A stretch of DNA of 64,000 nt from Mesostigma viride (taxonomy: Eukaryota > Streptophyta > Mesostigmatophyceae > Mesostigmatales > Mesostigmataceae): positions 3,792,002 through 3,856,001 of the forward strand of contig RPFO01000312.1 in NCBI GenBank assembly GCA_009746045.1. The letters run 5' to 3'. The notes under the pieces are model-generated. The model searched no databases, was not told the DNA's origin, and worked only from the letters and a program-made list of their open reading frames with translations. How positions within the stretch are numbered: the first letter of the stretch is position 1; the number at the start of each line of letters is the position of its first letter. Positions 2,504 to 64,000 of the stretch are shown piece by piece. The translations under genes were made by a program, and so were the position numbers.

Positions 2504-5500
2504 ATGTCCGCAGATGCAAGCACCCACCCAACGGCTCGTTGCCAATTCGCATGCTGTGCAGGCATGTGTCACTGATTGTTGGAACTTGCCACTGGTCGAG
2601 CTTTGCTGGCCGTCACGTTTTGCCTTCGTACGCCTTCTAACAAGAGAACTTCACCCCTTGACACTCATGACTGCTTTCTGCCTTGGTACTGCCCCATCCT
2701 GGGCTGCTCAACCATTTTTTTTTTTTTTTCCCCACTCTCTGTGGCGTGCAGGGAGCATCCCCTCGGGCGAGCAAATCAAGTTCCCCTCAGAGCTGCGGGA
2801 CCGCGAGTGGGCCACCTGGACGTGCACGCTGGGCTGGCCGGTGCAGGGCATCTGGCCCAAGTACGCCGATGGGACGGACATCAATGCTTGCGCACGCACC
2901 AAGCAGGGCTCATGGGCGGAGAACGAGTGCGTGCTGGTGACCGCGGACGACTTCGGTCTCATCAAGCTGTTCCACTACCCCTGCGATGTGGCCAGGGTAA
3001 GGGGGTGCCTGCGTGCTGCTGGGTAGACCATGTGACATGCTCTTGCTGCTCGGTAGAGTATGTGCCATGCTCTTGCTGCTGGGTAGAGTATGTGCCATGC
3101 TCTTGCTGTTGGGTAGAGCGCATGCCACATGTGCGTGCTGCTGGGTAGAGCATGGGCTTCTCTGTCAGTTCGCTGGCTGTGGGAGGTTCCCTCCCTGTGT
3201 CACCTCAGCCAGTTCATGTAGTTCATGCTGGATGGCCTTTGCCGTCGTAGATTCTGCGGTGAGGATACGAATAAGAAGAGCGATGCTGATTTTGTTCGCC
3301 CTGCCGCTATGCTGATTTTTTTAGTCCTGTCACTATGCCGATTGCCGCGTGTGTTGCCCCCCCCCCCCCCCCCAGGCGGACTACAACGCGTACGAAGGCC
3401 ACGCGGCGCACGTCACCAACGTGTGCTTCTCCCACAATGACAAGTACCTCATTTCCACGGGGGGAGGTGACCGCTGCGTATTCCAGTGGAGGCACCTGGA
3501 GGATGGCGAGGCGGATGGCAGCGGTAAGTGCGGGCATGCGCGCTGGCTGCTAGCGTGGGCGGTGGGAATGAACAAGATCAGATGGTGAGCACCCTGGAGG
3601 CAGTTTGTTGGATTGCCCAATAGGTCTACACTTACCCAGCGTGTCCACTCTAGTTTTTGTGCATGTACATTGTCATCATCTGCCAGTTGTTCATTCCTGT
3701 CCTCAACCTGATCAAAGAATGCTGGTCACGTACTGACTCGATCTGTAGCGCGTGCTGAATGCTTCTTTTTTATTCTGGCACATGTGTATTTTTAACTGCT
3801 CTCCCGTGTGCGTACCTCATCGCCTTTGAAATGCTCTTTCCCGTTCCATTCCTGGGAGAGATTGCAGCCCCCGCACACCGCCTGTAGTTTCTTGTCCCCT
3901 CTCGCGCCCCTCCTGTCTTTATCCTCCTGTTTCATATCCCGCCACGGCCCTCCTTCCCACCCTTGTTAAATCTCCACCCCTCCCCCCTTGCCTTCATCCC
4001 CTTCTCTATCTCAGCCCTTCTGCCCCTCGTCACCGTCCCCTCGATACATCATCGATACAACACGTCCCATACTCTCCTCTTCATCACATCTTGTGGCTCC
4101 TCGGCACACTCTCCCTCCTTATCGTGTCCTCTCCTCGGATAACTCTCTTCTCCCCCCAGCCACATCCCCGATTAACCCCTCTTGCCGAGCGCGCTCGTAA
4201 TGTCTTGCCCACGGGGACATCTCTCCTTTGCCTGCGTGTGCGCAGACTCGGACGAGGAGGAGGCCGTCCGCGACGAGAAGATCGAGCACACGGCTGGCAA
4301 CCAGGCCACGCTCATGATCCCCCTGGGCATGGAGAACGGGGTCATGCGGTGGGAGCCTGTGAACGCGGCCGAGGGCAAGCCCAACCCGTACAAGAACCAC
4401 GGCGTGCGCGAGCTGGGCGCCAAGAAAGGGATGAAGAGCCCGATGGTCGGCCGCCCCTGCCTGGGCCAGACATTCATGCCCACGGGCTTCACGCCGGGCC
4501 CCAGCGCGTATGACATGCCGCGCGAGAGCCTGCAGCTGGAGTGGGTGTATCCTTGCCCCCATGCCCTCATCCCCTCAGGCCCCCGTGCCCCCATGCCCTT
4601 TTTCCCACATGCCTTGATGCCTCAACGCCCCCGTCCGGCTTGCTGTGCGATAGGGTAGAACGTTTGGCAGGTGTATAGGGTAGTTTCGCTCTTTGCTTTA
4701 GTCCGGTGGATGGGGTAGTCGGAGAAAGGGGGTCCAAGTAGGCCCAATGCATAGGGATTGTCAAGATGCATGTCGCGTCCTCTAAGAAGTCCCCCAGACC
4801 TTAACTTTCCAAAACTGCCCAAAGTGTGTATATTTGACCACGTGTGTTCGTTCACGGCTTTGTCGTTTGCGGCTTTGTCGTTTTTGCGTCCTCTGTTTGT
4901 CCACGTGCATGTTCACCAGTCCGCACATGCGCCTGTGCTATAGCCCACGTGCTGTCCCGTGGCCCTGGTCGTATAAGTCACGGAGTGAGTACTTGGGTCT
5001 GCGGTGCACCGGGTGGGATGAGGGGGATATTGGGGGGAAACTGCCTTTTCTGTCTTTGGCAAGCTTGCTGGCGTAGACTAGTATGGACACCATGATCCTT
5101 CACCAATGGGGATCTGCCCGTTCACGTTCAATATCATTTCTTCAATTAAAATGTTAGAAGCAAACGTATCCTATGATGATGTGATAGTAGAGTTTAGGAT
5201 GGGTGTGCATGAACTTTGGACATTTTTCCTTGACCTTGCCACGGCTTCGAGCCACACCGACGGCGCCGTCTGGGCCGACACATGTACGCACGCTCATGGC
5301 CACGACACAACGGTCCAGTTACGGTTACCGTGGGTACGACACACGCAACAGCGTCTACTATACCAAGGACGGCCACATTGCCTACTTTGTCGCGGCGTGG
5401 GCCATCGCGTACGACCCGCAGGGCCACCGCCAGCGGCACCTGACGGATGACCCGATGACGGCGTCAGAGAGTGAGGGCAACACGGACGACATCCTGTGGT

Positions 5501-8500
5501 GAGTGGACATTAAGTATTAACAGGTGGTCAGTGCAGGTAGTGAGCATCATGAGCAGATGGTGAGAACAAGGCGGGCGACATCCGCTGGTGTGCGCGCAGT
5601 TGTTACTTTATCATGTGGACGGGTGATAAGGGAGGTGGGGGGGGATAGATGCAGCGTATCCCTCTGGTGAATGGAGGTAGTGAGCAGATTGGGCTGATGG
5701 TGAGGGCAGCTGGTGAGGGCAGGCTGCGGCAGCCACGGCTTGTATCGATGTTATCCACCAGATGCGCTTGGCATGAACGAAGGGGCAGGCAGTCACGTCA
5801 TTGGTTTGTGATTACTGTATCCGGGTATGCGAAAGTACGACGAACACACGTGAGAATAGGGAGGTGCGCTAGCCAGAGCGCCGAAGCATGTTAGTTTTAT
5901 CCACGTAGGAATTGGTGAACGGCAGATGTTGGTCTCCCAGCATCCCACATGTGCTAGGGGCTCGAAAGCACTTAATAGGGCTCCATAATCTTCTCACGCA
6001 GGTGCTTGTTTATTTTATTTATTGTTTAGTATGATTGAGTACTTTTTTACTCCTTATTCAATGGGTATCTTCCTCCGTGCATTAGTGGAAAGTGCCCACA
6101 TTCGAAAACCATCGCCTCACGATCGGCACCCCCTGCCCCGCCCAACGCGCAGCATGGCGCGGCACCCCGACGGGCAGCACTTTGCGACGGGCGAGATCGG
6201 GCGCACGCCCAAGATCATCGTGTGGGACAGCGAGACTATGAAGGGGGTGGCCGAGCTGCGCGGGTTCCACTCGCGCGCGGTGGTCTCGGTCTCCTTCTCC
6301 CCCGACGGCAAGCACCTGGCCTCGGTGGGGCTGGATGATGACCACAGCGTGGCCATATACGACTGGCGGGCCGAGCAGCTGCTGGCCACATACAAGGGCG
6401 ACAAGAACAAGGTAGGAGAGAGGGGGGGAGTAGAACACAGGAAGGGAAGAGGAGGAGAGAACGCGGGGCATGGGGAAGGAGGGACAAGGCAAGGGAAGAG
6501 AAGCGGAGAAGTTGCTGGCCACGTACACGGCGACAAGGACATGTTAGGAGGGGGGGGGGAGTAGAACAAGGTGGGATTCTGGGACCAGCAGGATTGTGGG
6601 ACATATAGGGTATGCCAACCAGGTAGGGTGGGGAGGCGAAAACAAAAAAAATAAAACAATGCAGGGCATGTGTTGCGGCAAGACCAGGGGGGGGGGGGGG
6701 GGGGGGGCAGAGCAATGGAATGGGGGGGTGTTTGAGAACAAGGGAGGGTGTGCGTGAGAGCCATGGGACAAGGGAAGGGGAGATAGGGAGGGAGGATTCT
6801 ATTACGTATCTTTCCCTATCAAGGGAAGGGGAGATAGGGAGGGAGGATTCTATTACGTATCTTTCCCTATCAAGGGAAGGGGAGATAGGGAGGGAGGATT
6901 CTATTACGTATCTTTCCCTATCAAGGGAAGGGGAGATAGGGAGGGAGGATTCTATTACGTATCTTTCCCTATCACAGCCCGTGTTGCATATGCGACCAAT
7001 GAACCATCGCGTTCAACCCCTATTCACCTGATCCCTCCCCCTATTCACCTGATCCTTCTCCTGACCTACCTGATCCCTCCTCCTGATCCCCCTATCCATC
7101 TGTGTATGCACCTGATCCCTCCCTATTCACCCAATCTTCTCCTCTACTTACTGATCCCTCCCTATTCACCCAATCTTCTCCTCTACTCACTGATCCCTCC
7201 CTATTCACCCAATCTTCTCCTCTACTCACTGATCCCTCCCTATTCACCCAATCTTCTCCTCTACTCACTGATCCCTCCCTATTCACCCAATCTTCTCCTC
7301 TACTCACTGATCCCTCCCTATTCACCCAATCTTCTCCTCTACTCACTGATCCCTCCCTATTCACCCAATCTTCTCCTCTACTCACTGATCCCTCCCTATT
7401 CACCCAATCTTCTCCTCTACTCACTGATCCCTCCCTATTCACCCAATCTTCTCCTCTACTCACTGATCCCTCCCTATTCACCCAATCTTCTCCTCTACTC
7501 ACTGATCCCTCCCTATTCACCCAATCTTCTCCTCTACTCACTGATCCCTCCCTATTCACCCAATCTTCTCCTCTACTTACTGCTCCCTCCCTATTCACCC
7601 AATCTTCTCCTCTACTCACTGATCCCTCCCTATTCACCCAATCTTCTCCTCTACTCACTGATCCCTCCCTATTCACCCAATCTTCTCCTCTACTCACTGA
7701 TCCCTCCCTATTCACCCAATCTTCTCCTCTACTCACTGATCCCTCCCTATTCACCCAATCTTCTCCTCTACTCACTGATCCCTCCCTATTCACCCAATCT
7801 TCTCCTCTACTCACTGATCCCTCCCTATTCACCCAATCTTCTCCTCTACTCACTGATCCCTCCCTATTCACCCAATCTTCTCCTCTACTCACTGATCCCT
7901 CCCTATTCACCCAATCTTCTCCTCTACTCACTGATCCCTCCCTATTCACCCAATCTTCTCCTCTACTCACTGATCCCTCCCTATTCACCCAATCTTCTCC
8001 TCTACTCACTGATCCCTCCCTATTCACCCAATCTTCTCCTCTACTCACTGATCCCTCCCTATTCACCCAATCTTCTCCTCTACTCACTGATCCCTCCCTA
8101 TTCACCCAATCTTCTCCTCTACTCACTGATCCCTCCCCCTCCCCTCCCCCCAGGTGCTGGACATCGTCTGGTCCCCCTTTGCAGCCGACCCCACGATCGT
8201 GACCGTCGGCATAAAGCATGCCAAGTTCTGCAAGGTGCCCTCCCTTGCCAAGGGGACCAAGCTGGCCCCGAAGAAAGGCGTCGTCTCCGAGAAGGGAAAA
8301 GTGACCACCTTCTACACGGCCGCGTTCCTGGGACCCGACACGGTGGCCACGGGCACCAAGGAAGGGGCGCTCTACATCTTCAATGGGCCCACGCTGAGCA
8401 AGACCGTCGAGCACGCGCACAAGGGGCGGCTGCAAGCGCTCACCGCGGTGCACGGCAACGGCGGCGTGACACTTGTCACCGGCGGGGACGATGGGCAGGT

Positions 8501-24736: not shown

Positions 24737-34268
<9,532 letters not shown>

Positions 34269-41799: not shown

Positions 41800-42957
41800 A
41801 ATTAATTAATTAAAATCATAGCTCCGTTGGGAGCATATGTAACACATATAGCCCTGAGAAAGGGGCATCTATGGGTTTGTAATACAATCAGGGCTACAAC
41901 CTGCAGGTGGAGGATGTACAACTGTCACCTGCTCTGGGTGCACAAGGTGCACCTGCACCGCCATGATGGTTCATGCCTCCTTAACAAGCACAGGCACCCA
42001 GGGGGGGCTTGAGGAGAGGGCCTAGAAGGCCTGCATGACATATGGGGTGGAGGGTATGTGGCTAGGCTATAGCTGGTGTACACATGGCATCTCAGCAGAG
42101 AGTAACTCCCTGCATAGGCATCGCATGGCTAAATTCTTAATGCATCATCCATGGGAGGTCCCATTGTAGGCTGGGCGCAGCTAAATACTGAAAGCATCAT
42201 CCATGGGGGCCATTATGGGCGCACATGCGCGTGGGCCACTTGCAAAGGCTAAGCCTATCTAATCTACACTACTGGTATATTCCCTAGTCTGGGGTGGCAG
42301 GAGGGGCCTGCCAGGGCTTGTGGTCAACGTGGATGACCGCCCCCCTCCAGTATACCGGCTTCCCCCCTGCACGCTGCCGGAGCTGAAGGTAGGTCGGCCA
42401 TAGCTCGCGTCGCCGCTGTTGCTGGGCCAAGGTCAAGTCATCGTCCAGCGTGAAGCGAGTCTCCGAGAGCTTCTTGCGGCATTTAAGGAACGCCAGCTTG
42501 TCCGTCATGTACTTAAAGGTGAGGAGAACGGGTGCCGGGCCAGCCTTCCCCCGCGCGCGGGGGATCGAGGCGGACAGCCGACATGTCCAGCTCACCGAGT
42601 GAGTAACATGGGGGCAAGAATGGCGCGCTTAAATGCCTCAAGAAGGCTCGTGGAGGTCTCACCTGCCGGCTGCATGGTCGAAGTGCTTGACGATGACATT
42701 GTGGCTGCGCTTGTCGATCGAGCTCGGCCGCCTCGCGAAGGTCGAGGGCTTGTTGCTTGAGTTGTGCCGCGATGGTGGAGGTGGTGGAGGTGGTATGATG
42801 CTTAAACAAGTCCGCCCAGGTGGAGGGAACATCACTGGCCGGGCCAGCAGGTGCCGGCTGGGCAGCGATTTCCTGCACCGCTTGGGCGGTGAGGCCGGCG
42901 GTGTCATGCAAGCTCTCGAGGGCGGTGGCGGTGGCTTGAAGGCGTTGGTCGTGATGA
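41800..42957 (-). mobile_element. Half-LINE: ORF1-only retroposon with 11-bp target duplication
   Basis: Flanked by ATGATCAGATT at 41789-41799 and 42958-42968. On - it holds LINE ORF1: KRSHNVIVKHFD (shifted frame), then VLLTFKYMTDKLAFLKCRKK, TLDDDLTLAQQQRRRELWP and KPVYWRGAVIHVDHKPW, the L1 ORF1p RNA-binding and C-terminal pattern. It passes straight into a 3' tail with hairpin CTCCCAACGGAG (41822-41833) and TTAA repeats. No endonuclease or RT lies between. The 50.2-51.4 kb copy has the same structure, so this is a family rather than one deletion. Confidence 0.8.
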
Positions 42958-49897: not shown

Positions 49898-50199
49898 GGA
49901 GGCCCTCGAGCAGCACGTGACCCCCCTCGCTGCAGACGTGGCAGCAATGCATGGGAGGCACGCTGGCTAGCTACTGAGCTCCCTCACCTTTCCATCACCG
50001 TCACCAGCTGGCTCCACCTCCACCCTCCTCGCCTCCACCTCCACTGCCGCCGGCCACCCGCCCCCACCTCCGACATCAAAGCCCAGCTCGACTCGACATC
50101 GACCAGCTAGCGCCTCTTGAGGACAACGCCATCGCCATTGAGTGGCAGCCTGCAAAACACCGCAGGCCTTACCGCTCAGGCGCGGTGAAGGACATCGCC
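49898..50199. other. GC-rich spacer
   Basis: CTCCACCTCC-type low-complexity sequence leading into the ORF1 relic; probably its degraded upstream part. Confidence 0.35.
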
Positions 50200-51375
50200 G
50201 CCCACGGCCGGCATCTGCTGGCCCGGCCAGCGATGCTCAGTCCTCACACCCAGATCGACCTGGCCCGACATGCTGAAGCACCACACCACCTCCACCACCA
50301 TCCATGCACCATGCATCGCGGCACAGCTCAAGCAACACACGCTCGACCTCCGGACGCGAGAAGGCCAACCTCACCAAGCGCAGCCACAATGTCATCGTCA
50401 AGCACTTCGATCAGCCGGCAGGTGAGACCTCCTCGGAGTCTCTTCTCATGGCATTTAAGCGCGACATTCTAGCATACCGGCCCCATGTACTGAACTCACT
50501 GGTGAGCTGCGGATGTCGGCTGTCCGCCTTCCCCGCGCGCGGGGTATAAGGCTGGCCCGGCTCCCCTGCTCCTCACCTTTCAGTTAATAAGTACATGGCG
50601 GATAAGCTGTCGTTTCTTAAATGCCGGAATTAAAAAGCGGCTCGGGGACCTCCTACACTCTGGACGACGACTTGACCCTGGCACAGCAACAGCGGCGACG
50701 GGAGCTACGGCCGACCTACCTCCAGCTCCGGCAGAGCGCGGGGGGGCGCAACCGGTATACTGGAGGGGGGACGTAATCCACGTCGACCACATTATTAAGC
50801 CCTGGCAGGCACCCCCTGCCACCCCAGCAAGTACCCCAGTCTAGATAATATAGCAGTAATTAGTGTAGATTAGTCATGCTTAACTTAGCCCGTGCCTGGC
50901 ACAAGCCTACGCGCATGTGCGCCGGCCCATATAAATATTAAAAATATAATTACTTACAGCAGAGTGAAATCACTCAAACCATATAAATACCCCCCCCCAT
51001 GGATGATGCCTTAAAAATTTAGCCACGCTTTGCCTATGATTGGACTCCCCATGGATGAATTTAGCCATGCAAGCTTTGCCTATGCATAGAGAGTCACTCT
51101 CTGCTGAGAAGCCATGCCCTCTATAGAGCTCCATTGTCTAGCCATGATGATCTTCCCCCCTATATCCAGGCGTATGTCCCGCCCTTGGTGCTGGAATACA
51201 TAGCGGTGACTGCGGTGCGCAGGTGCACTTTGTGCACCCATGCAGAGCAGGTGTAGTTTACACCCTATAGGTATACCCTGGCACTGAGGAAGTATAGCTA
51301 AGAATGTATTAAAAGCCATATGCGCCCCTTCTCAGGGATATGTGCTACATGCATGTACTCCCAACGGAGTTATAA
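50200..51375 (+). mobile_element. Second half-LINE (ORF1-only) copy
   Basis: ORF1 segments: KRSHNVIVKHFDQPAGETS, LLMAFKRDILAYRPHVL, MADKLSFLKCRN (then a stop), TLDDDLTLAQQQRRRELRP. They pass directly into the tail that ends with hairpin CTCCCAACGGAG at 51358-51369. Layout matches 41800-42957, including no endonuclease or RT. It is inactivated by stops and frameshifts; target duplications were not identified. Confidence 0.7.
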
Positions 51376-54394: not shown

Positions 54395-55083
54395 TCACTC
54401 CACAGCCCCGTCTCCAACCATCCTGGAACCCTTCACAAAGTGAACCAATCCCCCTTCTTCGTGTCCTTCCCCCTGGTTCCAAACACTGGAAAGTGCTCCA
54501 CCATGGACACCCGGATCTGGCCAGTTCCTGCTGACCTGAATAGCCAGGCAGGTCTCAGCAGCCTTGCCCAACTCAGCTGAAAACCCACTGCACTGGGCAG
54601 GGTAGGACAGAGTAACCACAGCCTGTCGGAGGGGGTCGAAGACCCAGCCACTGGCAGTCTTATGGCGACATAGCCAGCTGCTATAGGACCACCACAGCTG
54701 TAGAAAGGCCTTGATAGGCCCCCACCTGGCCCCCAAGATGGGTACCAACACCCTCAAGGGCGTGAGCCTGGCCCTCAGCTCGTTAGGGAACTTTGGTAAC
54801 TGCAGCCCCACGAAGACCGTGCTGTCCTTGTGTGGAAAACATGACATCACAGAGCAGCTGGACGACGGAGTCATGTCAAACTCTCCCTGCTTGACAGCTT
54901 GCTCGAGTAGCTCAGTGTAGGTCTGGGAATAACCAACTGGCTTGAGCTCTGCAAAGGCGAGTCTCAGATCACTGGGCAGAGCTGCCATCAAGTCCTGGCC
55001 CTCCACCGGCCTCATGTCAAACGAAGGCCATGGGTACACTGCAAAGACGGTGTGCATAATGTAAGCCACCATGGGTGAACCAA
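54395..55083 (-). CDS. 3'-terminal ORF of the LTR retrotransposon, interrupted
   Basis: About 230 codons open on - from the insertion point at 55083 to a stop at 54395, some 340 bp before the LTR. The sequence (MVAYIMHTVFAVYPWPSFD near its start, QLPKFPNELRARLTPLRVL in the middle) matches no integrase or RNase H motif I can recognise. It could be a C-terminal polyprotein piece or an additional ORF. Its upstream part is cut off by the transposon's inserted end. Confidence 0.4.
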
Positions 55084-55115
55084 CCCTACCAGCCATTTAG
55101 AATGTACTCCAGCAC
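55084..55115. repeat. Left 32-bp terminal inverted repeat
   Basis: Perfect complement of 63959-63990. It contains GAATGTACT, the motif that recurs in the central promoter repeat and again just inside each end (AAAATGTACTT at about 55119 and 63948). Confidence 0.92.
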
Positions 55116-55149
55116 GCAAAATGTACTTCGTACCGAAGTTTGTCTTTTT

Positions 55150-55930
55150 ATGCTGAAAATTGTCATGCATGATGTTTGCAACCAAAATAGACCTCGTACA
55201 AAGTTTGGTATCGATCGGACGTCATCTTGGTGACATTTGCTAGCAATAAAGGTACATTTTTGTCATTTTAAATTAAATTAAATAGTAATAAATAGGAAAC
55301 AGTACTAAATCACGTCAAACCATCATGGATATTTGCAAGCAACCTAATTACCACTAGAATAGACCATGCACAAAGTTTGGGGTCAATCTGAACTCAAAAT
55401 AGTGACGTTTGCTAGCATAAATACTGCATTTTTTGCCATTTTCAAGCATTTTGCTCAGTGTAAGCTACTAAACAAAATCAAACTACGTCATAAAGCTATG
55501 AAATGTTGAAAGCAACCTAAACACCACTAGATTAGACCATGGGCCAAGTTTGGGCTCTGTTTGATGTCAAAATAGTGACGTTTGCTAGCATAAATGGTGC
55601 ATTTTTTGCCATTTTCAAGCATTTTGCTCAGTGTAAGCTACTAAACAATATCAAACTATGTCAGAAAGCTATGAAATGTTGGAAGCAACCTAAACACCAC
55701 TAGATTAGACCATGGGCCAAGTTTGGGCCCCGTTTGATCTCAAAATAGTGACGTTCGCTAGCATAAATGGTGCAATTTTTGCCTTTTTCAAGCATTTTGG
55801 TAAGTATAGTTGCCTCAAACTAAGTCAGAAAACTGTGAATTGTTGTAAATAACCTGTTTGCCACTACATTAGACCATCCTCAACTTGTAAGGTCAGGCAT
55901 AGGTAAAGGTAGTGACACTTGCTAGCACTA
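55150..55930. repeat. Diverged 173-bp tandem repeats in the left subterminal region
   Basis: About five copies; the best pair starts near 55521 and 55694 (173 bp apart). Shared blocks include CCACTAGATTAGACCATG, AGTGACGTTTGCTAGCATAA and GCATTTTGCTCAGTG. No ORF. Confidence 0.8.
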
Positions 55931-56347
55931 TATATGAGCATATTATGCCTCTTTTCGCATATACACATAAAAAATAACAAGACAATATTAAATCATGGCC
56001 TTAATACAAGGTGTGCAAATGCAAATCACACCAGATCGGATGACCAATGATGGGTGGCTGCATGCCAACACATCTACCAGGCTGCAGGGTGAGAGGCCAC
56101 ATCGCTACAAGACAGGAATCCTCGCAATTGCACACCGCTAGTACACTGCATACCCCAAGAGGATTTGGCTACAAGCCATAAAAGTTTGGCCATGCTAACA
56201 CATTCTTCATCCAAGCAAACTGCAGCCTCTCCAAACTCAACTCATTGATTTAAATGCAACTAGGCCAGGCGTGCATGCTCTACTTGCCGATAACCATGAG
56301 TAAACTTGTGTACCACTTCATTCCATGCGCCGGTAGATGGCACCGTC
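55931..56347. other. Non-coding spacer downstream of the transposase gene
   Basis: AT-rich 3' flank of the - strand gene inside the transposon; nothing recognisable. Confidence 0.5.
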
Positions 56348-59300
56348 TCATCTACCAGTCATCCCCGGCTCCCATTCCGCATCCTCCTCTCCCTCTCCCT
56401 CTCCCTCTTCCTCCTCCTCCTCCCCCTCCCCCTCCCATTCTCCCTCCCCCTCTCCCTCCCCCTCTCCCTCCTCCTCCCCCTCCTCCTCCCCCTCTTCCTC
56501 CCCCTCTTCCTCTCCCTCTTCCTCCTCCTCCCCGCCTTCACTGTCACTGTGCACAGCAGGGACGGCATCGTCCATGTGGGTGCCATCACCTGCATTCACG
56601 GTGCCACCCTCCTGTGGAAAGAAGCGAGCGCGGCCAAATGCCTCGACTGGGTGTGGGCAGCCGCACACAAACTGAGTCACCTCCTCCAGGGCATGATAGT
56701 CCTCATACTGCCCATCAGCCCACATCGCCTTGATGAGCAGGTGACCTCCCCTTTCCTGAACCTTAGTGACCCAGCCATGGAAGCGCTCCCTCTTCCTCGC
56801 TGTCCCCGGAAACAGGGCACACAGGCGCATCCCGATAAGCGCACGTGCTCCATGCTCGGCAAAGTAGGCATTGCAGTCATCCTTTGCTGCTGCCCTGGCG
56901 GCGGTGGCAGTCTTGTAATGCTCAAAGTCAATCTGCGGGTGCTCTTTCAACGCCGCCACCGTGGCAGCTGACAGTTTGCCGGTACTGATCAGCTCAGGCT
57001 GGTGCACCTCTGCCGTACCGCCCACTGTCCAGTGCTGCAGGTGTACATCAGAAATGGGGACCGTCATCCCTGCGCTGCCGCCACCTAATGTCACTCTAGA
57101 AAACTGGCCCGTCCACGTCGGTGCGTAGTAAGGAGAGGCGACAATGCTGTCACGCTCCGTGCGATCGCCTTCCAGATCAAGGACCTTCACCAGCATGTGT
57201 GGTGCCCACGGCATTCCCTGCCCGCAGGTGACGGCTGGCCGCTTAACAACGAGTAGGTCGCCGCGTCGTATGAGGCTTCCATTCACCTTGAAGGTGTGCC
57301 TGCCAGAAATCAGTGTGCGCAAAGCGGGCGTTGCCGTTGATGTGCTCCCTCGCGCAGCGGGCGCACATGCGCGGTTGATCTGCGCTTGAATCTCGCGGGC
57401 AGGGCAAGCGACGTGCGAGATGACTTGGTTTACGGGCAGCCTCAGTGCCCGTGTTGCCCGCGCAACCGACTGGTCGCCTGCAGATCGCAGCGGCAAGGGT
57501 ACCGCCTTGTTCGCTTGCAGTTCACGCTGCTCTTTGAGCTTTTGCTCCATGATGTCGAACAGATTCTCGTTGTTGGCACGCACATCCTCCACGGACTTTG
57601 GCACCTGCTCAAACCATCTGTCCAGCAACTGCTGCTTCTCAGCGGAGACGATGTCGGGAAAGAGGCCGTGAAGGCTAGCGCAGGTACGTCTCCTGGCACC
57701 GCCCTCGTCCCATTCAAAAAGCGGTGCTAGACCGGGACTTCCCTTGGGGGCCTTGCCACGCTCCATGAGGAGGCACCCATAGACAGGATCTCCCTGCGGG
57801 GTGTACCCAATGGGCGTGACCCCGTCACAAGCCTCGCCGTTAGGCCCTGTGGGCTGCCACTTGTTCACCGGTGCATTTACCAACGTTTCTGATGCGGCTA
57901 GGCGCCAGCGGACATACACGTTCATATCCGGCCCTAGAAACACTTCGAGATCGAACACCTTCGAAGAGCGGTGCCTCTCCCTCTCGGCTTCGGTTGCTGG
58001 CTCATCATCCAAGTTGGCGGTGGCGCCCGCGCCCGCGCCTACGCCCGCGCCTTGGGTGGCGCCCGCGCCCGCACCCGCGCCTTCTCCCCCGCCCCCGCCC
58101 CCGCCTGCACCTGCGCCCGCGCCATGGGTGTCGCCCGCGGCTGGCTTCTTCGGAAATGCGTCCATCGATTTCACCCACCGGCCAAAGTCGCGGTGGATGC
58201 ACCCATTCAGCCACGTTGTGACATCCAGTGCGGCGTCCACAATCTGCAAGCAATAGAACAGTCATGCAATAGGAATAATGCAATATGAATAATCATTAGT
58301 ATCAACGATGCGTTCATGCAGACGTGAACATGTGAAAAACAACAAGCATGCAACAACGACTCCAGCACACTTAGTAAATACTGCTCATAATATCTGTAGC
58401 ACATGCAACATGGTTAAAACACACATGGATGACCTATATGGCTGCACATGAAGTGTGCACATAGAGAAGACTAGAAATCCAGCATGATATCAAGAGCCAT
58501 CCACACTAATATAAGTCTTACCGCAGCTTGGGGCTTCTTCGGGTTGAGTTGGCGCATCGAGTTTGTCGGGCCCTGCTCGTAGTAATGCTCAAATGCGATG
58601 CCAAGGCCCGCCAGCACATCATCAAATGTGATTAGTTTCACAGGTGGCCTGTCCGTCACCTTGTTCTTTAAGCCATTCATCCACCTGACGAACCAACCGA
58701 ACCGTTGATCACAATCAATATGAGTGTGACCAACGGGTAGCCTGCAGAAGCGGACACGGTCAAACAGTCCTCTCATGATGAGGACGGCGGCGAACCCCAG
58801 AACCTCGCGGTTCATGTTGTCGCCGCCACCGTCCACCTGCATGACCAAAATTCTGGGCAGCCCGTAAGCCCTTATCTCAGGGTCCGTGGCACTGTTCCAC
58901 GACTGTTGCTCGCAGATTTCAATGATGTGACGAACAAGGATGGTGACAGTTATCCTGCCCGAATTACCAGCCACAGCCTTGTTGATCACCCATGGTGCGA
59001 CCACCCAGAAAAAAGTCCTCAACCCGTGTGCAATCGTACAAATCAGGGTGTAAGGTACGGTCAGGTCTCGCTTGGAAAGAAAGTCCTTAGGCGCCTCAGC
59101 CGCCGCAGGAATGTGAGTCCTCATGTGAGCGATAGCGTCCATGGACATGGAATGATAGTGACCGTTCTTACCATTAAAGCGCCTGACAAGAAACCCCTTC
59201 CTCTCTACATGAAAAAGCTCTTCGTGGTTGGCGAGTTCCTCCTTCCAATACTCCCATCGTTTAGTGTCAGTGTGACGGGCAGCATTGATGTTGTTGTTGA

Positions 59301-60183
59301 TGTTGCTGCAAATGTTGCACACGCCCATGATCTTCGTGCGAAACTTCTCCACGCGGACATAACTGGTTGCAACAACCTCCTCAAAGATGATCCGGAACAG
59401 AGTGAGAGACACGAAGGGAAAGTTGGCTTCCTTCTCGTTCTCCTTCACATAAGTGGCGAAAAGAGTCTGCTTGCATGGCTCCTCAATGAACGTAGTTCCG
59501 TTTGTCGGGTCATTCTGCACCGCGGGCTCCAACCACCGCCGAATCCACTCCTCCGCAAGCGCCCGTGCTTCCAGCCCCCTCTCCTTGCAGCCCCCGCGAG
59601 ACTGCTTCTTGCCATGGTGGCCGCTTACATCTATGACGTGCTGTCCCTCGGCTCGCGCTTGGCGCTCATCAGCCACCTCGTGGACCGACGAGTGCCAAAC
59701 GTGGTTGCTAATTTTCAGGCAGTGCCTGAATGCCGCCTCGCAAACCTGAAAGTGAAAAGGGGTCACAGACCCTGTGTTCTTATCCTTGACTCCCCCGTCG
59801 AGAACGAACCGGAAACCAGCGTCATGAACGAACTTGTGACGAGTAGATGACGACATGGTCGTTATGGCGTCGTACCCCCCCTGGTGCAGCTGCTGCTTTA
59901 TCGCCGCCTTCCTGTCCTCTTGCTTCCGCCCGGGCGCAAACCAGGCGCTCCGCAATGCCTGGAGATGTGATGTTTTAATGGGCTTCATGCACTCGTGGCC
60001 GCACTTACAGTCGACCGTCTCGTCGGTCACTAGGCTGCCGGCATGGGTGCTGCCGCTTAGCATTTCAGCTGCGGACTTGCGCTTCCCATGGTGTCCCATC
60101 AGCATGATAGCGAAAGCCAGGAAGCAGAGAGCCACGATTATGTCCCAGCAAAGCCATAGCACACCTTCCGTTTCGACCGCCAT
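56348..60183 (-). CDS. DUF7869-like putative transposase (two exons)
   Basis: Exon 1 60183-58522 and exon 2 58243-56348 (GTAAGA donor, TTGCAG acceptor, phase 0), 1185 aa. ATG at 60183 is the first in frame. Residues 8-29 are strongly hydrophobic, odd for a nuclear protein. CKCGHEC (59-65) and CNIC (289-292) could bind zinc. The core has SMSMDA (D349), MQVDGGGDNMNRE (D451, D455) and RLPVGHTHIDCDQRFG (D490, D492). The last two match the pattern I associate with DUF7869 proteins, presumed RNase H-like; assigning catalytic roles is inference. Exon 2 adds an Ala/Gly-rich linker (about 594-630), a beta-rich region (RHTFKVNGSLIRRGDLLVV), FHGWVTKV and a Glu/Gly tail. The two exons could be misread as separate ORFs; the splice and phase argue for one protein. 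Confidence 0.75.
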
Positions 60184-60287
60184 GTCGGCCACTAGTCCGG
60201 ATAGCTCAACGTACACCTGACCTTGACACTAATCGCACAAACAGCCACAATTTTGCAAGCAAGAAGACATGGCTACCTCGGCATTTC

Positions 60288-60612
60288 ATGAAATGTACTT
60301 CGTGAAATGCATTTCGTGAAATGTACTAAGGAACGTGATTGGCCGGCGTTCGCTCGCCAAATCTCGCAAAATGTACTAAGGCACGTGATTGGTCCCGCAA
60401 AATGTACTAAGGAACGTGATTGGCCGGCGAAGATTCTGTTTGCAACAATTAAAATTCCCTACAGAATCTTCGCCGGCCAATCACGTTCCTTAGTACATTT
60501 TGCGGGACCAATCACGTGCCTTAGTACATTTTGCGAGATTTGGCGAGCGAACGCCGGCCAATCACGTTCCTTAGTACATTTCACGAAATGCATTTCACGA
60601 AGTACATTTCAT
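60288..60612. promoter_or_regulatory. Central perfect inverted repeat, shared divergent promoter
   Basis: Perfectly complementary 151-bp arms (60288-60438, 60462-60612) around a 23-bp spacer. Each arm has three copies of an AATGTACTAAGG plus CGTGATTGG unit, the latter an inverted CCAAT box. Start codons are 105 bp (-) and 78 bp (+) from the outer edges, so both genes see the same sequence upstream. Confidence 0.85.
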
Positions 60613-60689
60613 GGAAGCTGCGCAGAAGACAGCCTGGAGGCAGAGGGAAAGTTCCTGTTCATCGTGAGTCGGGGTTAGCAATCACGGCG

Positions 60690-63028
60690 ATGTCGTCTGC
60701 CATGGCGGAGGAAGTCGGTAATGGCTGCCCTGCCGCGGTAGAGAACCTGGAGGAAGTAAAGATCGAAGAAAAAGCTAAGGAAACTAGCGCTGTGGAAGGG
60801 GGGGTGTTGGGCGACAACTCCAGACTTCGAAAGAGTTTTGTTCCGTGCCGGGGGGCTGTCGCTGGGTTGGAGCGCATGGCGCAGGATGCTAGGTCAGCCT
60901 CGGGGAGTGGCCTTATTAGCTCGGCCCCCGTGTTCAGCAAATGCCTAGTAAAGTATGGTGGCCACTTAGGGGTGCGTAGAATGGCTATGAATGCGGTGGC
61001 ATCGAAGATGACGGCAAACAAAGGTGCCGTCATCAACGTCATTGACGTCGGTGGGGGGACGCCTGCAGGCGTGAGGCGACAGAATGGTGAGAATCAGCTG
61101 TACTTGCTGGATGCCACTATGCTGACAGAGTATACCAGCTTCTCCGAGGCGATTCATCTCGACGTGCGCAAGGGGCAGGTAACCGGAAAGCCGGGATATC
61201 CCGACATCTTCGTCGCCTGCGAAACTGGGAACGACACATTCGCAATCGGAGACTTGGTCACGTTTGATGGCCAGGCAGCTGTCGCTGACATGGCTTCTGC
61301 AATGGAGCTTGACGTGGCGACATTCTCCTCGGCCCTAATCGCTGGCCTGGTCCGTACGGGGGGTAAGAATGATAGAGAGGAGCAGTGGTTCTGCCTGGTA
61401 ATGCCCCTTTTGAGCGATTCGCAGGGGTTTTACTCGCTGCCGTCCACATCACCGGGGAAGCAGTTTCCGGCAATGTGGTGTAAGCCGCGGTTGCTGGCAG
61501 TGGATCTGGGCGCCCATGGGGCAATTCGAGAAACTTCTCTGGTGGCCCAAGCTGTGGAAGCCGCCGCGGGAATATTCTATGACCCAAACTCTGCCATCAA
61601 TGCATTAAAAACTACCTGCACGCAAGAGAAAGGCTGGAGTGTAAGTCTTGCACGAATGCTTTCCTCTTTGATATAAGTGCCTTTTCCGTGGATAGATTGG
61701 GCTCTTTTTATAATAAATAAATAAACACATGGTAAAATGTCCTTGGGTTGTTTTGTCCTGTATGCACCTCCTTGCCCAACATCCAGGCTGTCGGCTACAA
61801 GGTGCCAGCGTCTACACCCCCTGCCACACTCCCAGCGCCGCCGCCAAGCACACCACTTCCTGCCTCACTCCCCTCGGTGCCCCTGCTATGTGCACCCCCT
61901 GCCGTATCTTCAAGGGCAGCTGAAGGGACTCAGGACGACGACATGACACCGCACAACAGCAGCGGGGATGGCGGTGACAACAGGTCAGACAAGTCTTACG
62001 GCTCGCCACCCGAGAAGAAGGGGAGGGTCAAGCAGGAGCATGCACCAGTGAAGCGCGAGAAGCATGTTCGCACTTGCACCAATGCATCTAAGCATGCCAT
62101 TCCACCTGTGGTTGCTGATGCTGCCATTCCCATGGTGACTGCTGGTGATGCCGACTTATCCGACTTGCGCTCGTCTCTGGATGAGGTCAAGAAGGAGTAT
62201 GATGGCTTGAGGGAGGCAATGGCCGAGGCTCAAACCGATATCAAAAGCATCCTCGGGGGCGGTCGCACCAAGCCAAAGCGGGGGAGCCAGGCTGTCGAGT
62301 CGCTGCCCGCTCTGGCCAAGAAGCTTGGCTTAGCTGAGGGGAGGCTGGCCAGGGTGGAGCAGGAGCACGCAGCTATAAATGCAAAGCTGGCCACACTTCA
62401 AGGCACAGCTGCAGCACCAGCAACGGTGGGGAGCAGGAAGAAAAAGGGGCAGGAGGTTGTTGCTGCGCAGCAGTCACCACCAAAAGTTGAGGCGCCCGCT
62501 ACCCCTGACATGCGAAAGGAGGTCAAGGAGCTGCGGGAGCGGGTGGAGCGACTGGAGCGCGAGTACCGTACTCCGTTGGTGGTCCCTGGTACTCCAGCCA
62601 GTGACTCCAGTCACGGGCTGGAGCAGCAAGGGCATCATTATTCAACACGGTCGAGTCCCCAGAGGGTGCTGCACTATGATGCAGCCATGGCTCAGCCCAG
62701 GGCTGTGACATATGTGGACGATCAGCGGGTGGTGTACACTGCTGCAGGAGGCGGATACCACAGGCAGGCAGCTCCCGTGACACTTCGCACGGCATTGGAC
62801 CCTGAGGTTGAATACCACCGGCATGCACCTCCAGTGACAAGCCGCTCGACATACAGTAACAGTGGGCAGGGCACTGCTTTCGTGCTAACCCCACCGGCAG
62901 GTCACCAGCAGTACTTCGACTCTGAATCAATCACGATGGTGCCTGTCACATCTCTCGCGCAGAACGTGGTGCACTTGCAGCCCGCTTATCCAGCAGTGGA
63001 GTATTCCATGAAGAAGCAACGGCGCTAG
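60690..63028 (+). CDS. Unrecognised 730-aa transposon-encoded partner protein (two exons)
   Basis: Exon 1 60690-61640 and exon 2 61787-63028 (GTAAGT donor, CATCCAG acceptor, phase 0). The start is the first ATG after the central repeat in a frame already open upstream. Residues about 75-320 look globular: KCLVKYGGHLGVRRMAMNAV, GGGTPAGVRRQNGENQLYLL, YPDIFVACETGNDTFAIGDL, WCKPRLLAVDLGAHG. I recognise no family. From 318 it is Pro/Ala-rich, with a probable nuclear localisation signal (PEKKGRVKQ, then VKREK, about 392-410) and predicted coiled-coil stretches at about 441-470, 492-522 and 558-575 (RKEVKELRERVERLERE). The C-terminus is Pro/Tyr/His-rich and ends MKKQRR. Divergent pairing with the putative transposase suggests a DNA-binding or regulatory subunit; this is inference. 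Confidence 0.7.
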
Positions 63029-63958
63029 ATTAGTAGCTTGGCTATCGATGCCATGCTTATCAAGGTCTATGAGGCATGGTGGGATGTCTTGTTAAGTGCT
63101 GCTCATTAAGGAGCACAGGTGAGCGATATGTTTGCAGGATGCTGTACATTGTCTTACACCATATGTTTTGTGGCTCATGTTTTCGCGCAGGCATTGATTA
63201 TACATGTATCATGCATCAAGAATGGCATGACAACTAGGACTATGCATGTGCAAACTAAGAGTAAAGCTCACGGGCTCTTTCATCAAGATAGCCATGCATG
63301 GAATATGTGTGCCCACAGTCCATCATGGTTGGAAACCGGGTGTTGCAACTTGCCTTGTTCAAAACTCTCTTAATAAAAGGCAACAATATAATTTGTGGTT
63401 GGTGATGTTTGGTGAGTTTCAAGAGTTTTGCCACAATGAAGTTGCTATTTTGCCATGTGCATGTGTCATGATTGTGAGGCGCTTTCTATGGTCCCTGATT
63501 ATATAGCTGTCTCACTTAATACTTGCTTATCGCTACAAGATGAATTATGACAACACCAGTATGCATGACATGCTTGCTTGATTACATGTGATCGCAAGGC
63601 GCAATGGGGGGCAGGATTGCCTCATTAGTCCGGTGGCTGCGACAGTTTTCGTGTAGCGAATCTGGGCGCGAGCAGGGTCGGGGAGCCGAAAGAGGCGGCA
63701 AAACCTGTTTTTCAAGGGTCTGGAACACTAGACAACTGCATAGCAGCCTTAAAATTTGTTCAAATGTAGTTCAATGTAGTACATTATAGTAAAAATGTAG
63801 TACAAAGTAGTACAAACTAGTACAATGTAGTATTTTGTAGCATATACTAGTTCAACTACCTCCAGATGAGATCCAGGGGCCATGGGGACACTTTTTTTGC
63901 AGAACTGAACTTGAAACAAGCAAAAAAGAGGAAACTTGGAAAAACTCAAAATGTACTT
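63029..63958. repeat. Right subterminal region with GTAGTAC repeats
   Basis: 3' flank of the partner gene, without ORFs of note. 63775-63850 holds about six copies of TGTAGTAC/AGTAGTACAA, related to the GTAC core of the AATGTACT motif, then AAAATGTACTT just before the terminal repeat. Confidence 0.7.
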
Positions 63959-63990
63959 GTGCTGGAGTACATTCTAAATGGCTGGTAGGG
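63959..63990. repeat. Right 32-bp terminal inverted repeat
   Basis: Perfect complement of 55084-55115, followed by CAA at 63991-63993, the same trinucleotide as before the left end. Confidence 0.92.
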
Positions 63991-64000
63991 CAATCTCACA

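What the first reader, a model, noticed from the sequence alone, without database searches (positions are those of the whole stretch)
55084..63990. Apparently intact 8.9-kb transposon of unfamiliar type encoding a DUF7869-like protein plus a partner
Seen: 32-bp perfect terminal repeats, CAA on both sides, two divergent spliced genes with open frames, insertion into a retrotransposon. Known: proteins with an LPVGHTH-D-DQ motif (DUF7869) occur in scattered eukaryotes, and I know of no defined element structure for them. Inference: this copy defines ends, target-site size and a second conserved gene for such a family.
Basis: partly seen in the sequence, partly recalled or inferred. Interest (0 to 1): 0.9.

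Follow-up and report, generated by a model that had tools for sequence, protein, structure and literature searches.

The report
Recently active two-gene algal DNA transposon
This is an intact, very recently active jumping gene, most likely from the green alga Mesostigma viride, with exact ends, a 3-base duplication at each landing site, and two back-to-back genes, one for a protein of unknown function that probably does the cutting and pasting.

Summary
Window 55084-63990 is an 8907-bp element with 32-bp perfect inverted ends (CCCTACC...) and CAA on both sides. Of 20 further copies fetched from the same genome, 10 are full length (2 substitutions in total against the window copy), 9 are an altered subfamily and 1 is truncated. 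All 17 copies whose two ends were seen carry a perfect 3-bp duplication; related empty sites exist. Gene 1 carries DUF7869 and keeps QxDGG...GHTHxDxDQ with the two downstream aspartates at fixed spacing in three lineages, as a DDD-type transposase would (inferred; structure prediction failed). Gene 2 matches no known family. Of 30 diverged gene-2 relatives on contigs whose GHTHxDxDQ sites were listed, 25 lie within 15 kb of such a site, all 25 divergent; but 68 of the 100 listed sites have no gene-2 match nearby, so the partner is old yet not universal, or often too diverged. AATGTACT sits at both ends and eight times in a near-perfect palindrome between the genes, suggesting that one element protein binds ends and promoter. 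Best reading: a cut-and-paste DNA transposon that I could not place in a named superfamily, with DUF7869 as transposase.

The parts
55084..63990 (.). whole element, 8907 bp
   Evidence: shared boundaries with 16 other copies whose two ends were seen; 10 full-length copies nearly identical
55081..55083 (+). target-site duplication CAA, left
63991..63993 (+). target-site duplication CAA, right
55084..55115 (+). left terminal inverted repeat, 32 bp
   Evidence: 100% complementary to the right one
63959..63990 (-). right terminal inverted repeat, 32 bp
55181..55927 (+). subterminal repeats with a period of 172-173 bp (last step 164)
   Evidence: families D2, D4, D6, D8
58522..60183 (-). gene 1 exon 1, with DUF7869 core (D349, D451, GHTHxDxDQ at residues 485-493)
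   Evidence: open frame; PF25273; residue numbers. The first 30 residues are uncertain (hydrophobic, may hold an intron)
56348..58243 (-). gene 1 exon 2 (last base of the stop codon at 56348), ends in an acidic low-complexity tail
   Evidence: open frame, GT-AG phase 0, fewer nonsynonymous than synonymous changes per site against subfamily B
60284..60616 (.). central palindrome, 156-bp arms with 1 mismatch, between the divergent genes; holds 8 AATGTACT and 6 CCAATCACGT; proposed bidirectional promoter
   Evidence: promoter role inferred
60690..61640 (+). gene 2 exon 1 (317 aa), conserved partner
   Evidence: relatives
61787..63028 (+). gene 2 exon 2, coiled-coil-like
   Evidence: weak coiled-coil type matches only

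Best explanation
An autonomous, very recently active cut-and-paste DNA transposon. Shown: exact ends, 3-bp target duplication, nearly identical copies, related empty sites, two divergent genes with open frames, and an altered subfamily with nearly the same ends. Inferred: the DUF7869 protein (gene 1) is the transposase and uses D349, D451 and D490 or D492 as a DDD triad in an RNase H-like fold, cutting the two target strands 3 bp apart. Inferred: gene 2 is a helper protein, probably DNA-binding. Inferred: one of the two proteins binds AATGTACT at the ends to pair them and binds the same motif in the central palindrome to regulate both genes from one bidirectional promoter. Inferred: subfamily B, which lacks the DUF7869 core, is moved in trans.
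For: Ends and 3-bp duplications in 17 of 17 copies with both ends seen, out of 21 examined. Related empty sites with the triplet once: two in the window for L013, one in L001 for L021. 10 full-length copies with 2 substitutions in total. DUF7869 is the only credible family match in gene 1. D451-x38-D490-x-D492 in A, the same in lineages C and D; D349-x101-D451 in A, x94 in C, not seen in D. Gene 2 relatives beside GHTHxDxDQ sites: 25 of 30 diverged rows, 25 of 25 divergent, 23 distinct sites. AATGTACT 13 times in the element, 2 times in the other 55 kb of the window, kept at both ends and in the palindrome of 6 of 6 B copies examined.
Against: No structure, no assay, no expression data. Both structure models failed. 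Profile search of solved structures gave no transposase. No sequence outside this genome tests the catalytic residues. 68 of 100 listed GHTHxDxDQ sites have no gene-2 match within 15 kb. Ends of the other lineages were not seen. Four of ten full-length copies have one-base deletions in the tract that codes for the acidic tail of gene 1.
Confidence: 0.75

Rival explanations
1. The element is a real transposon, but DUF7869 is an accessory protein and gene 2 or an enzyme encoded elsewhere does the catalysis.
For: No catalytic test; gene 2 is also old and paired with DUF7869 genes; subfamily B spreads without either intact gene.
Against: Gene 2 shows no family match and its second exon is coiled-coil-like. 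Lineages C and D have many copies and no gene-2 match nearby among the listed rows, while the DUF7869 aspartates are kept.
Confidence: 0.15
2. A very diverged member of the EnSpm/CACTA (CMCT) group.
For: 3-bp duplications, subterminal repeats and two genes. CMCT elements make 2-5 bp duplications (PMC12730594, passages).
Against: Ends are CCC..GGG, not CA..TG; no C(2)C and H(3-4)H between the second and third aspartate (sequence); no EnSpm-type Pfam match.
Confidence: 0.07
3. A diverged member of the PIF/Harbinger (PHIS) group.
For: 3-bp duplications and two proteins are known there (PMC12730594, passages).
Against: Only 2 of 17 duplications fit TNA and 1 of 17 fits ANT (ACT, by reading the list); no Harbinger transposase or Myb/SANT match in Pfam.
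Confidence: 0.03

Closest known systems
DUF7869 (Pfam PF25273)
   Same: Gene 1 matches above the curated cut-off
   Different: Pfam gives no function and no element structure; here it lies in an element with defined ends and target duplication
EnSpm/CACTA and the wider CMCT group
   Same: 3-bp duplication, subterminal repeats, two-gene layout (the two-protein layout of Spm is recalled)
   Different: Ends CCC..GGG; no C(2)C/H(3-4)H motif before the last catalytic residue; no Pfam match
PIF/Harbinger (PHIS)
   Same: 3-bp duplication, transposase plus second protein
   Different: No TNA target preference, no Harbinger or Myb/SANT match
KDZ (Kyakuja, Dileera, Zisupton)
   Same: Large elements with a large transposase gene (recalled)
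   Different: Zisupton makes 8-bp duplications (PMC12730594, passage); no KDZ match in Pfam

Membership tests
[quoted passage not shown]
[quoted passage not shown]
   3 bp in 17 of 17 scorable copies; three related empty sites with the triplet once, one further poor match that does not keep it
[quoted passage not shown]
   spacing and motif order fit; structure models failed
DUF7869 (PF25273) | Score above the curated cut-off | tested here: met
   49.5 bits against 26; 3 of 3 members of A3 match
EnSpm/CACTA (CMCT) | Duplication of 2-5 bp | tested here: met
   3 bp
EnSpm/CACTA (CMCT) | CA..TG ends (in most cases) | tested here: not met
   CCC..GGG
EnSpm/CACTA (CMCT) | C(2)C and H(3-4)H between second D and last catalytic residue | tested here: not met
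   absent between D451 and D490/D492, if those are the catalytic residues
PIF/Harbinger (PHIS) | TNA (or ANT) target triplet | tested here: not met
   2 of 17 TNA, 1 of 17 ANT; pattern as described in PMC12477816 (passage)
PIF/Harbinger (PHIS) | Harbinger transposase and Myb/SANT partner | tested here: not met
   no Pfam match
KDZ (Zisupton) | 8-bp duplication | tested here: not met
   3 bp

The most novel reading that the evidence does not exclude
DUF7869 proteins are the transposases of an undescribed superfamily of eukaryotic DNA transposons, marked by a D-x(about 100)-D-x38-D-x-D core with QxDGG and GHTHxDxDQ, by CCC-ended inverted repeats and 3-bp duplications in the type element, and in part of the lineages by a divergent partner gene. 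The ends and a palindromic bidirectional promoter share one binding motif, so that the same protein assembles the ends and controls expression.
Probability: 0.6. Interest if true: 0.8.

Novelty: new variant of a known kind. Interest (0 to 1): 0.7.

Why it matters
A DUF7869 protein is tied here to an element with exact ends, target size and very recent movement, so its function can be tested with a simple excision assay. If it is the transposase, a lineage is added to the catalogue of eukaryotic DNA transposons, the 234 GHTHxDxDQ sites of this genome are explained as mostly transposon genes, and there is a candidate active transposon in an early-branching streptophyte alga. The shared end and promoter motif gives a testable model of self-regulation.

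Tried and rejected
Protein search with each gene alone gave nothing (in each the 8000 candidates sharing most words were scored). A three-sequence profile found two proteins, both matching the subfamily-B fragment of gene 1 by reading. Viral contigs: no relative with alignment A1, whose search words came from poorly chosen stretches; one GHTHxDxDQ match in a frame full of stops, judged chance. Phage records: no match. Solved structures: 12 marginal matches for A1 (adenylyl-sulfate kinase, prolyl peptidases; E 0.14 or worse), judged chance, none for A3. Structure models of exon 1 (553 aa) and of a 176-aa core, each from one sequence, failed, so no fold search was run. Rfam at gathering thresholds: 0 matches in the window. 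Never answered: a whole-genome count of the ends, a whole-genome gene-1 protein search and a whole-genome empty-site search; copy numbers are therefore lower bounds, and empty sites were sought only in sequence already held. The collections genome contigs, plasmids and E. coli genomes were not searched.

Considered and rejected: assembly artefact (the 11 full-length copies, window included, lie on 9 contigs and have different flanks and triplets); ordinary EnSpm or Harbinger (features not met).
Full report
WHAT WAS CHECKED. The element at 55084-63990 is real and its ends are exact. The 32-bp arms are perfect and CAA flanks both sides. A 317-bp probe from the left end gave 40 full-length matches of 99-100% identity, the window copy among them; 40 of 297 candidates were scored. 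The genome holds 440 Mb in 2243 contigs. Of the 39 other places, 20 were fetched whole; 19 were not. Of the 20, 10 are full length, nine are an altered subfamily (B) and one (L011) follows the element only to position 8436.

ACTIVITY. The 10 full-length copies differ from the window copy by 2 substitutions altogether (element 8904 in L010, element 58 in L022); three have no difference at all. All indels (one in each of the other seven) lie at element 1302-1393, a CT-rich tract that codes for the acidic tail of gene 1. In four copies the indel is one base, which shifts the tail's frame or is an assembly error. Such identity means very recent spread; that the family still moves is inference.

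TARGET SITES. In 17 of 17 copies where both ends were seen (window, L009, L010, L012-L024, L027) the flanking triplets match perfectly. Four of the 21 examined (L011, L025, L026, L028) could not be scored, because no right end was found in the stretch; L025 has 4451 masked bases and L028 124. The 17 triplets are of 15 kinds, without a clear consensus. Joined flanks of these 17 copies were compared with all sequence then held. L013 has related unoccupied sites at window 42299-42917 (92%) and 50147-50791 (79%) and a poorer one in L026 (77%); L021 has one in L001 (85%). At the junction the first two and the L021 site carry the triplet once; the L026 site does not keep the triplet. The other 15 copies had no such match in what was held. 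For the window copy, removing the element and one CAA leaves an open frame of at least 413 aa on the minus strand (right flank from L049).

GENES. Gene 1 (minus) has exons 60183-58522 and 58243-56348 with a phase-0 GT-AG intron; gene 2 (plus) has exons 60690-61640 and 61787-63028, 731 aa. One search joined gene 1 one base out of place; the gene 1 frames rest. Gene 1 matches DUF7869. Its exon 2 was compared with nine B copies: no stops, 14-17 synonymous differences in 307-330 sites against 15-18 nonsynonymous in 944-1029, a ratio near 0.33. One-sided binomial p is about 0.001 with counts rounded to 17 and 34; the nine copies are close kin and count as one comparison. Gene 2 has no match in Pfam or NCBIfam beyond weak coiled-coil type hits in exon 2.

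OTHER LINEAGES. PF25273 gave 150 matches above the cut-off (150 of 275 candidates scored) and 0 in 14 control genomes. The DNA pattern for GHTHxDxDQ occurs 234 times (133 + 101); the pattern read backwards, 0 times. The 100 rows listed hold 13 different 27-base words by my count, about 11 if one-base variants are merged. Two further lineages could be read: C (L029 and kin) and a 103-residue piece of D (L051). Identity to the window protein is 26% and 46% over the aligned parts. Spacing: D349-x101-D451-x38-D490-x-D492 in A; x94, x38, x1 in C; x38, x1 in D, whose first aspartate was not seen. The order of a hydrophobic stretch with D, a helix-like stretch, a second hydrophobic stretch, then D in another helix-like stretch is what an RNase H-like core would show; that sentence is my reading and no tool result.

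THE PARTNER GENE. The exon-1 protein of gene 2 gave 71 matches in its own genome (82 candidates, all scored): 14 identical, 57 diverged (23-42% identity). A fair test uses contigs up to C1435, for which one search lists all its sites. There, 9 of 9 identical rows and 25 of 30 diverged rows lie within 15 kb of a GHTHxDxDQ site, all 34 in divergent orientation. The 25 rows stand for 23 distinct sites; 21 of the 25 lie within 5.1 kb. One search gave 28 of 34, but three sites had been added by hand because they were seen to lie near, so 25 of 30 is the better figure. The five misses lie on contigs without a listed site (C1227, C433, C680, C777, C480). The other 27 diverged rows, on contigs beyond C1435, were not tested in this way. 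Chance nearness is about 1.6% per row. Against universality: 32 of the 100 listed sites have a gene-2 match within 15 kb, 68 do not. The rows of lineages C and D are among the 68. Loss, strong divergence or absence of the partner could explain this.

CIS MOTIFS. Between the genes lies a palindrome with 156-bp arms and one mismatch. AATGTACT (either strand) occurs 13 times in the element: twice at each end, once more near the right end and eight times in the palindrome; it occurs twice in the other 55 kb of the window. CCAATCACGT occurs six times, all in the palindrome, and not elsewhere in the window. In 6 of 6 B copies examined AATGTACT is kept at both ends and in the palindrome. I read this as a bidirectional promoter with sites for an element protein that also binds the ends; it recalls TNPA of Spm (recalled, not tested).

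SUBFAMILY B. In all nine fetched B copies no sequence matches element 3564-4597, which holds the DUF7869 core, and where the right end was seen the right half is low-complexity sequence in place of gene 2. Six B copies have both ends seen: 1 mismatch to A's end at the left, 3-4 at the right, with 3-bp duplications. They are best read as non-autonomous elements moved in trans.

HOST. The profile search gave two hits: a gene model named Mesvir1/Mv10966, which I read as Mesostigma viride, and an entry of Prorocentrum lima in EukProt. Both match the B form of gene 1. The published Mesostigma viride NIES-296 assembly is 442 Mb in 2363 scaffolds (PMC6947507, passages), this genome 440 Mb in 2243 contigs. 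So the host is most likely Mesostigma viride. The P. lima entry is probably contamination (inference).

COMPARISON. Passages of PMC12730594 give CMCT features: CA..TG ends in most cases, 2-5 bp duplications, C(2)C and H(3-4)H before the last catalytic residue. The first and third are not met. Harbinger's TNA triplet (PMC12477816, passage) fits 2 of 17; Zisupton's 8-bp duplication is not met. I do not file the element in a named superfamily. Searches for a description: 'DUF7869', 0 papers; listings, returning no paper; passages of four papers. None of what I saw describes it. Only passages and listings were seen, and Repbase Reports and subscription papers are not in that library, so an earlier description cannot be excluded.

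SHOWN AND INFERRED. Shown: ends, duplication size, related empty sites, near-identity of copies, two genes, pairing with the partner in part of the lineages, shared motif. Inferred: transposase role of DUF7869, RNase H fold, DNA binding by gene 2, autoregulation, movement of B in trans.

Noticed in passing
window 29920-34265: A second transposon: frames with MULE transposase (PF10551, E 1.2e-15) and SWIM zinc finger (PF04434) matches.
   Followed up: no
P0002: A EukProt entry for the dinoflagellate Prorocentrum lima nearly matches the subfamily-B form of the gene 1 start; contamination or transfer.
   Followed up: no
L019 and kin, element position about 4243-4716: In subfamily B the central palindrome is longer: it also holds an inverted copy of the start of gene 1.
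   Followed up: partly
L028 positions 501 and 9439; L019: Three B left ends share the same 15 bases of left flank, two of them in one 10-kb stretch: tandem or segmental duplication, or an assembly effect.
   Followed up: no
L019, L021, L023, right halves of B elements: Long low-complexity, GC-rich repeat arrays stand where A has gene 2.
   Followed up: no
window 42299-42917 and 50147-50791: Two copies, in opposite orientations, of a repeat that is the unoccupied relative of the L013 insertion site; its own nature was not worked out.
   Followed up: partly
L029-L048: Lineage C carries the DUF7869 core in a long open frame followed by a repetitive glycine/alanine/arginine-rich tail.
   Followed up: no
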